DNA of 64,000 nt, taken from Streptomyces sp. NBC_01304. GTDB taxonomy: Bacteria > Actinomycetota > Actinomycetes > Streptomycetales > Streptomycetaceae. The DNA lies in the NCBI RefSeq assembly GCF_035975855.1, contig NZ_CP109055.1, forward strand, positions 3,038,001 to 3,102,000. Direction: 5' to 3'. Below are positions 39,186 through 43,316 of this stretch, piece by piece. Made by a program: the position numbers and the translations under genes. A model generated the notes under the pieces. That model worked only from the letters and a program-made list of their open reading frames with translations, was not told where the DNA came from and did no database searches. Every line of letters begins with the position of its first letter. Within the stretch, counting starts at the first letter, position 1.

Positions 39186-39656
39186 ATGACACCACCCGCC
39201 GCCCGCTCGGCCGCCCTCACCGTGCGTACGTTCACGGAGCGCTTCAGCTCCACGCCGCTCGGCGCCCGCCTCGCCCGTCATCTCGCCATCCGGCAACTGC
39301 ACGCCTGGGGCATCCCGTACGGCTGCGACACCTCCGGGACGGCCGCGCTGATCGTCGCCGAGCTGGCCGCGAACGCCGTCACGCACGGTCGCGTTCCGGG
39401 GCGCGACTTCGAACTGCGGCTCGCGGTCGACGCGTTCGCCCTCCGCATCGAGGTGTCGGACGCACGCGGGGAGCTCCGCCCGCCCGTTCCGGGCCGGCTC
39501 ACCCACCCCTCAGCCGAAGCCGCCCACGGCCGGGGACTGCTCTTGGTGGAGGCGCTTGCCGACCGGTGGGAGGTGCTGGACCGGGGGCCCGTGGGCAAGA
39601 CCGTACGGGTGGAACTGGAACTGCCGCCGACCGGACCGGTCGGCCGGGTCACCTGA
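39186..39656 (+). CDS. HATPase_c_2 ATP-binding (RsbW-like) protein
   Basis: 156 residues. The N-box [12 protein letters not shown] and the G-motif [13 protein letters not shown] are those of anti-sigma-like serine kinases. It is divergent from the XRE gene, completing a common Streptomyces trio (XRE, DUF397, HATPase). Its 3' end overlaps the geosmin-synthase stop by 8 bp, tail to tail. The ATG follows CAGATT by six nt without a Shine-Dalgarno, so the mRNA may be leaderless. Confidence 0.85.
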
Positions 39657-41862
39657 CGTCGACCCGCGCCGCCCCCGTCCCCAGCCCCACGGGCCCGCCC
39701 GACCACCCCGGCGACCCGGGCCCGTGGCGCAGGAAGACCTCCCGGTAGCGGCGGCAGCCCTCGTGCCAGGTGTGGATGCCGGCCATCCAGTGCTCCAGCT
39801 CCCGGACGTATCCGCCAAGGGCCTCGCGCACCTGCTCCGGCAGCTCGAAGTCGGCGTACAGGATGGGGAGTTCGTGGGCGGCCACGTGCTGGAACTGGCG
39901 CATCCGGGAGGTCATCAGGTCGTTGATGATCGCGAGCGCGGTCGGGTAGTCGCAGCCGAAGAAGATCTGGACGACGAGGATGCCGTTGTGCACCTCCCCC
40001 TCGTACTCGATCTCCTTCTGGTACGAGTACACGTCGTTCATCAGCCCCGAGTAGTCGGCCGCGGCCTTCTCCAGGGCCTGCACCGGCCGGCTGGCGTAGA
40101 TCTCGGGCGGGATCGTGCGGCCGTGCCCGATGCGGCACAGGCTCATCGTGAGGTCGGCGCCGAAGGTGGCGCGGCGCATCTCGATGTAGTCGACGGGGTC
40201 CGGGACGCGATGGAGCGCCTGGTTGTCCAGTTCCCAGAGCCAGCTGGCGGTCATCTTCTCGATGGTGTCGCGGAACGCGCGCCGCGCCTCGACGGTCATC
40301 GGTCCGGCCGTACGCGCCCACAGGTCGGCCAGCGAGCGTTCGAGGGCCGTGGCCGGGGCGGGTACGGGCTCGTCGTCGACCGGCATGAAGGCGGGCAGCC
40401 GGGCGGTGCAGGCCCGGGCGCCGATCAGGTCGCGGGGGCGGCCGTAGACGGCGGGGTAGAGGTCGTCACCGTACGTCCCCCAGGTCAACCACTGGGAACT
40501 CAGGGCGAGTTCGTCCGGTGAGGCATCGGGGTAGATGCCCGCCGCGCACAGCGGGAAGTCGAAGCGGCGCAGGCCCTCCTCGTCCCAGACCCCGGAGAGC
40601 GGAACGCCGGGCTGCGGTCCAAGGAGGCCCATGCGGTGGGACCAGTCCACCGTTGCGCGGCGGGCTCCTTCCAGGTGCGGGCTGAGGGTGGTGGCGTACG
40701 GCAGGTGGAAGTCGGGGATCAAGGAGGGCCCGACCCGCTGGTACGGGCGGTGGGTGTGGCTGCGCAGACGGTGCTCGTGCGCCGTGGTGAGGGTGTGCGT
40801 CAGGTCCGCGGCGGAGGTGCCGAGGCCTACAACTGGGGTGAGAAGGGCGGGAGTTCCGGACTCCTCGACTCCCCCGCCGTTCATGTACCGGCTGGAGCGC
40901 CGATGCCACTCATGGCCGCCGGCCTGCCAGTCCTGCAGCCCTTTGGCGTACGTGAGCACGTCGGCGCAGGCCGCCGGGGCCAGGCCGTGCTCGGCGAACA
41001 GCGGCGCCAGTTCGGTGCCCACCGTGTGCTCGAACTGCTGCAGCCGCGAGGTGATCAGGTCGCCCACGGAGTCGGCCGCCTGCTGCGTCGTACAGCCGAA
41101 GAAGGTCTCCAGGACCAGGACGCAGTTGGCCAACTCCCCTTCCTCCTCGGTCTCGCGCTGGTACGAGAAGAGATCGTTCCGCAGATGAACCGCGTCGGAG
41201 AAGGTGTCCCTGAGCACCCGCAGCGGCCGCGATTCCGCGACGGCGGCGGGCACTTCGGCGCCCGTCGCGTACTCCACCAGGCCCGCCGACCAGGGCGCGC
41301 CGCCCACCTTTCGGCGCATCTCGACGTACTCGACGGGGTTGGGGATCCGGTGGGCGTCGATGTTGGAGAGCTCCCACAGCGACTCGTTGAGGAGGTGCCG
41401 GGTGCTCTCGGCGAACCGCTCCCGCCAGTCGGCGGACATGGCGTCGACCGTACGGCCCCACAGATCGGCGAGACCCGCCTCGACCGGGTCGACGGGCTCC
41501 GGCGTCCCGTCGGACCGATCACCCGGCATGAAGGCGGGCAGCCGGTCCAGATGCGCCTTGCCACCCGCCCGGTCGAGGGTCTTCTTGAACTTCTCCAGGA
41601 AGTGGTCGTCGAAGAAGAACACCCACACGTACCAGTCCGTGACCAGCGACAACGCCTCGCCGTCGCAGTCGGGATGGGTGTACGCGCACAGCAGCGGGTA
41701 GTCGTGCGCGTCGAGGTCCGCCTCGTCCCAGATGCCCGAGCCCTCCAGCATGCCCATGTCGCGGGCCCACTGCTTGGAGTGCGTCCGGGCCTGCTCCAGG
41801 TGCGGGTTGAGCCGTGCCGGGTGCGGGGTGTAGAAGGGCGGCAAGATGAAGGGCTGCGGCAC
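39649..41862 (-). CDS. geoA: Geosmin synthase (two-domain germacradienol/geosmin cyclase)
   Basis: 737 residues in two terpene-cyclase halves. The N-terminal domain has DDHFLE (85-90) and the NSE triad NDLFSYQRE (229-237); it should turn farnesyl diphosphate into germacradienol. The C-terminal domain has GDDLYP (465-470) and NDVYSYQKE (609-617) and should convert germacradienol to geosmin. The sequence closely resembles the S. coelicolor SCO6073 enzyme from memory. The linker holds P343-V-V-G-L-G-T-S-A-A352, and the tail repeats the theme as P724-V-G-L-G-T-G-A-A732. GTG 41862 has GGAGGAG upstream. It lies 14 nt after an encapsulin gene and is probably its cargo. Confidence 0.93.
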
Positions 41863-41876
41863 CGGGGCTCCTCCCG

Positions 41877-43316
41877 TCAGGCGGCGGCCGTGCGCGAGAC
41901 CTCGACGTTCTCCAGGACGCCGAGTGCGTCCGGCACCAGGACGGCGGCCGAGTAGTAGGCGCTGACCAGGTAGGAGATGACGGCCTGGTCGTTGATGCCC
42001 ATGAAGCGCACGTTCAGGCCGGGCTCGTACTCGTCGGGGATGCCGGTCTGCTGCAGGCCGACCACTCCCCCGTTGGACTCGCCGGTACGCATCGCGATGA
42101 TCGACGACGTACGGGCCGCGGTGACCGGGATCTTGTTGCACGGGAAGATCGGCACGCCCCGCCAGGCCGGCACCTGGTGGCCAGCCACATCGGTGGTCCC
42201 GGGGACTAGGCCGCGCTTGTTGCACTCGCGCCCGAAGGCCGCGATGGCCCGCGGGTGCGCGAAGAGGAGCTTGGTCTGGCGGCGCATGGACAGCAGTTCG
42301 TCCAGGTCGTCCGGGGTGGGCGGGCCGGAGTGGGTCTGGATGCGCTGGCCGAAGTCGGCGTTGTGCAGCAGCCCGAACTCACGGTTGTTGACCAGCTCGT
42401 GCTCCTGGCGCTCGCGCAGCGCCTCGATGGTCAGGCGCAGCTGCTGCTCGACCTGGTTCATCGGGTCGTTGTAGAGGTCGGCGACCCGGGAGTGCACCCG
42501 CAGGACCGTCTGCGCCACGCTCAACGCGTACTCGCGCGGCTCCAGTTCGTAGTCCACGAAGCTGCCGGGCAGCGCGGGCTCGCCGTCGTGCCCCGCGGAC
42601 AGGGCGATGTCGGCCTCGCCGGACCGGTTCTGCGGCAGGTCGGCCTCGGTCAGCCGCCGTTGGACGTGGGCCGTCAACTGCGGTTGCTGCCCCGCCACTT
42701 CCTCGTACGCGCGACGGGGCAGGGCGAGCACCGTGCACGGGGTCACCGCGCGGGCGGTGAGCTGCCACTCGCCCGGCTCCTCCGCGAGCACCTGCCCGCC
42801 GAAGAAGCCGCCGTCGGCGACCAGCCCGCGCCGCGTCTCCTCGCCGTACTTGCCGGCGCCCACGTGCTCGACCTTGCCGTGCGCGATCAGGTACACGTGA
42901 TCGGCGGGCTGCCCCGCCTCGGCTATCGCCTGCCCGGGGACGTACTCGCGCTGGGTGAAGCGCTCGGCGAGGGCGCGCAGCACCTCCTGGTCGTCGTAGC
43001 CGCGCAACAGGGGCAACTCGCCCAACTCGGCTGGGACGACGCGCACTTCGGCGCCTTCCTGGACGAAGGTGACCCGGCCGTCGCCGACCGCGTACACCAG
43101 GCGCCGGTTGACCCGGAAGGTGCCGCCCCCGGTCTGCACCCAGGGCAGCATCTTCAGCAGCCAGCGGGAGCTGATGGCCTGCATCTGCGGTTCGGACTTG
43201 GTGGTCGTCGTCAGGTTGCGTGCGGCGGCGATACCCAGGCTGAGCTGCGCCTGCCCCTCGGAGGGAGGCGGCTGATCCGGTTGCTCCGACTGCTCTGTCG
43301 TCGCTGCGGTCGACAT
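41877..43316 (-). CDS. eshA: Family 2B encapsulin shell protein with cNMP-binding-like insert (EshA type)
   Basis: 479 residues. A disordered N-terminal arm (1-50) leads to HK97-like shell parts; a CAP_ED-like domain is inserted at about 100-215 ([25 protein letters not shown], then [14 protein letters not shown]). The shell continues with [37 protein letters not shown] and the E-loop/P-domain to VLENVEV. The phosphate-binding cassette lacks the usual Arg and Glu, so nucleotide binding is doubtful. EshA of S. griseus is reported to form particles and affect development. Family 2B shells are known to hold terpene cyclases, especially 2-methylisoborneol synthase; here the cargo candidate is geosmin synthase. 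Start ATG 43316 has AAGGAA upstream. Confidence 0.9.

What the first reader, a model, noticed from the sequence alone, without database searches (positions are those of the whole stretch)
39649..43316. Geosmin synthase coupled to a family 2B encapsulin, with a repeated candidate cargo motif
An EshA-type encapsulin gene with a cNMP-like insert is followed 14 nt later by a complete two-domain geosmin synthase. Family 2B shells are known to enclose terpene cyclases, mainly 2-methylisoborneol synthase. The synthase has no long disordered N-terminus, so loading would need another signal. A candidate is PV-GLGT-(S/G)-AA, found in the interdomain linker (343-352) and again at the C-terminus (724-732); from memory, 2-methylisoborneol synthases carry a like motif (GPTGPGTAAL) in their disordered N-terminus. 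This would be geosmin made inside a protein shell.
Basis: partly seen in the sequence, partly recalled or inferred. Interest (0 to 1): 0.85.

Follow-up and report, generated by a model that had tools for sequence, protein, structure and literature searches.

The report
Geosmin enzyme in borrowed protein shell
In this bacterial genome a gene predicted to encode the enzyme that makes geosmin, the smell of damp earth, sits directly behind a protein-shell gene whose closest relatives accompany a different odour enzyme (likely 2-methylisoborneol synthase), so geosmin here would likely be made inside a borrowed nanocompartment.

Summary
In detail: a Family 2B encapsulin gene (43316-41877, -) is followed after 14 nt by a complete two-domain geosmin synthase (GS; 41862-39649, -), with GLGTxAA copies at or in the two low-confidence segments of the model. 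Coupling and repeated motif are already published (PMC8346489, section 8).

New here:
(1) The window's shell groups with 2-methylisoborneol (2-MIB) operon shells; a clade with four other GS-linked Streptomycetaceae shells is rejected (p-AU 7e-30). This reads as a cargo swap. A relative (L373) carries shell, 2-MIB-type cyclase, methyltransferase and GS in a row.
(2) The genome has a second GS without a nearby shell gene; it keeps only the tail motif.
(3) GS without a nearby shell gene also keep the motif: 186 of 187 hold at least one copy (171 at a stricter threshold), versus 81 of 81 linked.
(4) GS almost never occurs without a shell gene somewhere in the genome: 95 of 95 class-sample and 315 of 316 genus-sample genomes. 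This fits loading in trans.

Loading itself was not tested.

The parts
41877..43316 (-). Family 2B encapsulin shell protein (479 aa) with cNMP-like insert; groups with shells of 2-MIB operons
39649..41862 (-). two-domain germacradienol/geosmin synthase (737 aa), GTG start 14 nt after the shell stop
40807..40836 (-). linker copy of the candidate loading motif, [10 protein letters not shown] (residues 343-352), at the end of low-confidence segment 332-347
39664..39693 (-). tail copy of the candidate loading motif, [10 protein letters not shown] (residues 724-733), in low-confidence segment 717-737
43218..43250 (-). N-terminal extension of the shell, [11 protein letters not shown], resembling the cargo motif (a lead only)

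Best explanation
The window holds a Family 2B encapsulin gene directly followed by a gene predicted to encode a complete two-domain geosmin synthase that carries, in its linker and in its tail, copies of a motif that likely docks the enzyme inside the shell, so geosmin would be made in a nanocompartment. The shell gene groups with shells of 2-MIB operons and not with the four other GS-linked Streptomycetaceae shells tested. The pair is therefore best read as a cargo swap: GS took the place of 2-MIB synthase behind a shell that already recognises GPTGLGTSAAR, a tag both enzymes carry. Shown: gene order, families, motif positions, tree placement, the genes beside the shell's relatives, motif statistics, co-occurrence. 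Inferred: that the motif is the tag, that loading occurs, that the product is geosmin, that the 2-MIB-type cyclases make 2-MIB, and that GS without a nearby shell gene load in trans into shells encoded elsewhere.
For: Families, 14-nt spacing and catalytic motifs. Two low-confidence segments in the model, one holding and one touching a motif copy. Shell placement: starred 100 clade of the window with 8 shells, all 8 from 2-MIB-type neighbourhoods, and a clade with four other GS-linked shells rejected (p-AU 7e-30); FastTree support 0.996. All 11 shells nearest in that FastTree clade have a match to a 2-MIB-type cyclase beside them and 10 of 11 also a methyltransferase match; a motif match is printed for each of the 11 loci, one as GPSGIGTGSLR. 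Five of these cyclases were run against NF041167: four pass the cut-off, and the one in L338, cut by the locus end, reaches 386.5 of 400 bits. L373: shell, 2-MIB-type cyclase (NF041167 438 bits), methyltransferase (NF041943 521 bits) and GS on one strand. GS-shell co-occurrence: 95 of 95 and 315 of 316. In the genus sample 4 of 5 shell-less genomes also lack GS, against 4 of 319 with a shell (Fisher p 8e-7).
Against: No loading or product was tested. The motif is nearly as common in GS without a nearby shell gene, so adjacency does not select for it. At threshold 5 some linked GS lack the linker copy (15 of 81) or the tail copy (3 of 81). The window's linker copy is the weaker one (score 11.2, p 0.013) and runs into a predicted helix. 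NF041168 is missed by 33 bits. The rows of the AU test were chosen after a first tree had been seen. The genome counts are not corrected for relatedness. The complementary-loss test is weak: LRT p 0.035 with 2 df, 0.15 with 4 df; independent pairs are uninformative.
Confidence: 0.72

Rival explanations
1. Ordinary member: a standard Family 2B GS operon kept from an old GS-shell partnership, as in cyanobacteria, myxobacteria and Streptosporangiaceae, with no swap.
For: GS next to one or two shells occurs in several phyla and is published (PMC8346489, PMC7251104, PMC12766979).
Against: The window shell is excluded from a clade with four other GS-linked Streptomycetaceae shells (p-AU 7e-30) and lies inside the 2-MIB-operon clade. 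Its GS lies in a 7-tip clade; of the other six, five show no shell within about 9 kb and the sixth is the L373 cluster.
Confidence: 0.15
2. The motif serves the enzyme itself (folding, domain contact, membrane or partner binding) and not shell loading; gene adjacency reflects co-regulation only.
For: The motif persists in GS with no shell gene nearby (186 of 187 hold at least one copy at threshold 5).
Against: The copies lie in or at the edge of low-confidence segments outside the two folded domains, one or the other copy is lost repeatedly, and the motif recurs in the single-domain 2-MIB-type cyclases beside the window shell's relatives, in a region that PMC8346489 and PMC6604706 describe as disordered. 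In the other terpene synthase loci held from this genome no frame of 200 residues or more scores above 12 except an ORF in another frame of L022; that limit lies just above the window's own linker score of 11.2.
Confidence: 0.2
3. Chance neighbours: shell and synthase are adjacent by accident and function apart.
For: In the genus sample most GS are not next to a shell.
Against: 14-nt same-strand spacing with an RBS-like stretch, adjacency in several phyla, and near-complete genome co-occurrence.
Confidence: 0.04

Closest known systems
Family 2B encapsulin GS-type terpene cyclase operons (Andreas and Giessen 2021, PMC8346489; section 8, part 1 read)
   Same: Same two gene families and the same motif (consensus GPTGLGTSAAR) between the domains and repeated at the C-terminus, already suggested as a targeting sequence.
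   Different: Here the shell groups with the 2-MIB-operon lineage, and the genome carries a second GS without a nearby shell gene.
2-MIB operon shells of Streptomyces (NF041167 cyclase plus NF041943 methyltransferase; Andreas and Giessen 2024, title seen only in a reference list)
   Same: Nearest shell relatives, 73-79% identity; their cyclases bear the same tag.
   Different: No 2-MIB-type cyclase or methyltransferase match in the window; the next gene is GS.
Cyanobacterial geoA-cnb-cnb operons (PMC7251104, passages)
   Same: GS beside cNMP-domain shell genes.
   Different: There the GS comes first and two shells follow; here one shell comes first.
Solved 2B shells 9bhu, 9bix, 9bje
   Same: 634-659 bits to the window shell over nearly its full length.
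   Different: Their native cargo was not checked by any search here.

Membership tests
Family 2B encapsulin | SrpI-like HK97 shell domain | tested here: met
   PF19307 466 bits
Family 2B encapsulin | cNMP-like insert, full-length model match | tested here: met
   PF00027 52 bits; NF041163 773.5 of cut-off 400, positions 1-450
Family 2B encapsulin | assembles a shell with cargo inside | not testable with these tools
   needs expression and microscopy
geosmin synthase | two class I terpene synthase domains with metal-binding motifs | tested here: met
   PF19086 in two stretches; [29 protein letters not shown]
geosmin synthase | makes geosmin from farnesyl diphosphate | not testable with these tools
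   needs an assay
NF041168 encapsulin cargo terpene cyclase | score above curated cut-off 1200 | tested here: not met
   1167 bits over positions 1-735; only 17 of 324 genus-sample genomes have a match over it
encapsulin-linked GS cargo | motif in linker and in tail | tested here: met
   both present; linker copy weaker, p 0.013, tail p 0.003
2-MIB shell operon | shell of that lineage | tested here: met
   100* clade with 8 such shells; AU test
2-MIB shell operon | 2-MIB-type cyclase and geranyl-diphosphate methyltransferase beside the shell | tested here: not met
   no match in the window at E 1e-15

The most novel reading that the evidence does not exclude
Geosmin is shell-made in nearly all its bacterial producers: GS is an obligate shell client that keeps at least one GPTGLGTSAAR tag even when its own shell gene is gone, because it loads in trans into whatever Family 2B shell (2-MIB or prenyltransferase type) the genome still encodes. 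The window is a case where a GS copy was re-linked to a 2-MIB shell. The tag may work by imitating the shell's own N-terminal SLGTxAAR segment.
Probability: 0.33. Interest if true: 0.78.

Novelty: new variant of a known kind. Interest (0 to 1): 0.5.

Why it matters
Geosmin and 2-MIB are well-known earthy odorants of soil and drinking water (general knowledge). If one tag lets both enzymes share shells, shell type and cargo can be exchanged by simple gene shuffling. The many Streptomyces GS without a neighbouring shell gene would then be compartment enzymes too, which would change how geosmin formation is studied and controlled. A genome with two GS, one linked and one not, is a natural test bed, and clusters such as L373 would allow two odorants per shell.

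Tried and rejected
Adjacency as the selective reason for the motif: rejected, since GS without a nearby shell gene keep it. Complementary loss of linker and tail copies as proof of function: the raw counts are striking (unlinked, threshold 5: 1 with neither; about 21 expected if independent, my arithmetic), but with the tree the support is modest (full dependent model p 0.15; loss-only model p 0.035; independent pairs uninformative). GS genomes without any shell as a decisive control: the three class-sample candidates (G374, G420, G595) turned out to have a shell gene or fragments by PF19307; only G287 remains, 1,420 contigs with a cut GS. PF19307 was not run on the GS-less class-sample genomes, so the 11 of 299 there rests on NF041163 alone. 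Shell N-extension mimicry: top site of the shell alignment, best hit in 104 of 148 rows, but 27 of 1000 column-permuted matrices do as well; kept as a lead. A motif-like hit in L022 is an ORF whose translation looks like a wrong frame.

Row handling: of the loci read, L299 gave no GS in one frame; duplicates and two truncated GS (L034, L191) were dropped before the 282-row count. 12 rows with short flanks and 2 'near' rows are in neither the 81 nor the 187. 'Unlinked' means no shell match in the held flanks: about 1.4-1.6 kb for the genus-sample loci and for class-sample loci L275-L301, about 5 kb for L302-L332, up to 8 kb for named loci. Of 19 loci not counted as linked and re-read with up to about 9 kb (two cut by contig ends), one (G241) had a shell 2.5 kb away; it stands as unlinked in the 187. 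The GS set is not a random sample: the named loci are the best 80 of 554 relatives.

Full report
What is there. On the minus strand, a Family 2B encapsulin gene (43316-41877) is followed after 14 nt, with an RBS-like stretch, by a GTG-started gene for a 737-residue, two-domain geosmin synthase (41862-39649). The shell matches NF041163 at 773.5 bits (cut-off 400), PF19307 and PF00027; the nearest solved shells are 9bhu, 9bix and 9bje. The synthase has PF19086 in two stretches, metal-binding motifs in both halves, and matches 5dw7/5dz2 germacradienol/geosmin synthase through its N-terminal domain. It falls 33 bits short of the curated cut-off of NF041168.

The motif. GLGTSAA occurs at 346-352 and GLGTGAA at 726-732. 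An AlphaFold2 model (51 sequences, mean pLDDT 89.3) has two segments below 50, residues 332-347 and 717-737: the tail copy lies within the second; the linker copy starts at the end of the first and runs into a predicted helix. With a matrix built from 17 cyanobacterial GS, the window scores 26.0 in the tail (p 0.003) and 11.2 in the linker (p 0.013).

What was already known. PMC8346489, section 8 part 1, reports GS-like cyclases in Family 2B operons with GPTGLGTSAAR between the domains and again at the C-terminus, and suggests targeting. PMC7251104 (passages) describes geoA followed by two cnb genes in cyanobacteria and deltaproteobacteria. PMC12766979 (passages) says encapsulins are consistently present in all its myxobacterial geosmin clusters. 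PMC12407261 (passages) says terpene cyclases are studied encapsulin cargo and that the insert does not bind cyclic nucleotides. The 2024 paper on 2-MIB synthase in a shell is not held; I saw only its title. Open-library searches combining encapsulin with geosmin or terpene terms showed nothing on cargo exchange or trans loading in the listings and passages seen; most listed papers were not opened, and subscription papers and bioRxiv are not held.

The genome. It has three Family 2B shells over the cut-off: the window's; one followed by a polyprenyl transferase (L019, NF041169 491 bits); and one without recognised cargo (L018). It has a second two-domain GS (L017, 68% identical) with no shell match within the 8 kb held on each side. 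That paralog keeps the tail motif GPVGIGTSAAR, while its linker copy is not detectable (p 0.60). PMC6604706 (passages) says almost no Streptomyces strains have two GS genes; here 8 of 324 genus-sample genomes have two matches (not all checked to be whole genes).

Cargo swap. The closest relatives of the window shell in the genus sample (73-79% identity) sit in 2-MIB-type operons: all 11 other shells of its FastTree clade (support 0.996) have a match to a 2-MIB-type cyclase beside them, 10 of 11 also a methyltransferase match, and a motif match is printed for each of the 11 loci, one in a divergent form. Five of these cyclases were checked with NCBIfam; four pass the NF041167 cut-off, and one cut by its locus end stays below it. 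In the wider clade of 30 (support 0.981) 9 of the other 18 shells show a cyclase or methyltransferase match within the held 1.5 kb and 9 show neither. An IQ-TREE tree of 34 chosen shells puts the window in a 100* clade with 8 shells of 2-MIB-type loci and rejects a clade with four GS-linked Streptomycetaceae shells (p-AU 7e-30; the rows were chosen after the first tree). The window itself has no 2-MIB-type cyclase or methyltransferase match, and none of the terpene synthase loci held from this genome (L009-L016, L020-L023; one partial PF19086 match was not fetched) resembles that cyclase at E 1e-15. The window's GS lies in a 7-tip clade (support 0.927). Of the other six, five show no shell within about 9 kb; the sixth (G241, L373) has shell, 2-MIB-type cyclase, methyltransferase and GS in a row on one strand. 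Its shell is in another part of the 2-MIB clade than the window's, so the two links may be independent. Two further GS-linked shells, L170 and L150, group with the one prenyltransferase-linked shell in the tree, L019 (100*), so exchange has probably happened more than once.

Is the motif tied to adjacency? 282 non-redundant GS were scored. Linked 81: both copies 63, linker only 3, tail only 15, none 0. Unlinked 187: both 63, linker only 66, tail only 57, none 1 (threshold 5). With neither copy at threshold 7: 0 of 81 and 7 of 187; at threshold 10: 0 and 16; by a strict core pattern: 1 and 14. So one copy is nearly always kept whether or not a shell gene is near, and two copies are commoner when linked. 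On the core tree about 10 tail losses and 14 linker losses are inferred, the other copy being present in every lost tip but one. Phylogenetic tests of dependence are weak: p 0.15 with 4 df, p 0.035 with 2 df; independent pairs uninformative.

Shells in the genome. 22 of 22 genomes searched for named unlinked GS encode a shell (21 over the cut-off, one a fragment); these were 22 of the 36 named loci without a shell in their held flanks, the others not being searched. Class sample: 95 of 394 genomes have GS. 92 of these have a 2B shell, against 11 of 299 without GS, and the remaining three have a shell gene or fragments by PF19307. Genus sample of 324: 319 have a shell, 316 have GS. Of the five shell-less genomes four lack GS, and of the 319 with a shell four lack GS (Fisher p 8e-7). 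The one GS genome without a shell, G287, has 1,420 contigs and a cut GS. These counts treat genomes as independent; whether the four co-losses are one event is unknown.

How it most likely works. The shell and GS are likely made together; the GLGT-type tags in linker and tail likely dock GS to the shell's inner face; farnesyl diphosphate would enter and geosmin leave through pores. Because 2-MIB-type cyclases of this shell's lineage carry the same tag, a GS could replace them without change to the shell. The same tag in GS without a nearby shell gene, and the near-absence of GS from shell-less genomes, suggest loading in trans. Loading, product and trans loading are inferred, not shown.

A lead. 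The shells' N-terminal extension has the consensus PQLSLGTAAAR, the best site for the cargo matrix in 104 of 148 shells, though 27 of 1000 column-permuted matrices reach its score. If real, the tag may imitate a shell segment.

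Noticed in passing
L373 (G241:C13:3900-23899), about 7787-13940, - strand: Shell, 2-MIB-type cyclase, geranyl-diphosphate methyltransferase and geosmin synthase in one row; both cyclases bear the tag, so two odorant enzymes may share one shell.
   Followed up: partly
L317 (G374:C12:462471-474654), shell at 3997-5091, - strand: A geosmin synthase followed by a Family 2 shell whose alignment skips the cNMP-like insert; it has no NF041163 match at the limit used.
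   Followed up: partly
L018 (G000:C1:3118000-3137999), 9808-11196, - strand: Third shell of the own genome, divergent (45% identity to the window shell) with no recognised cargo beside it; it passes both the 2B and the 2A model cut-offs.
   Followed up: no
L133 (Hyalangium versicolor): Geosmin synthase of a myxobacterium with no shell match within the 8 kb held on each side, although PMC12766979 reports encapsulins in all its geosmin clusters; the genome does encode two shells.
   Followed up: no
G283:C1 7545004-7546395 and 7565320-7567479; G199:C1 495977-498136 and 516567-517979: In two genomes the GS lies about 18-19 kb from a shell on the same contig; the G283 shell (L366) has a methyltransferase match beside it, the G199 shell (L358) shows no 2-MIB neighbour in its held flanks.
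   Followed up: no
L329 and L330 (G629): Divergent two-domain cyclases (about 45% identity to the window GS), one flanked by shells on both sides, with motif copies; the product may differ from geosmin.
   Followed up: no
window 38180-39025 (-) and 39186-39656 (+): An HTH/DUF5753 regulator gene and a histidine-kinase-like ATPase gene (PF13581); the latter's end overlaps the GS stop by 8 nt from the other strand.
   Followed up: no
window 43700-47184, - strand: Upstream of the shell: a gene with a weak, below-cut-off receptor ligand-binding match and an AAA-domain NTPase gene; their relation to the shell is unknown.
   Followed up: no
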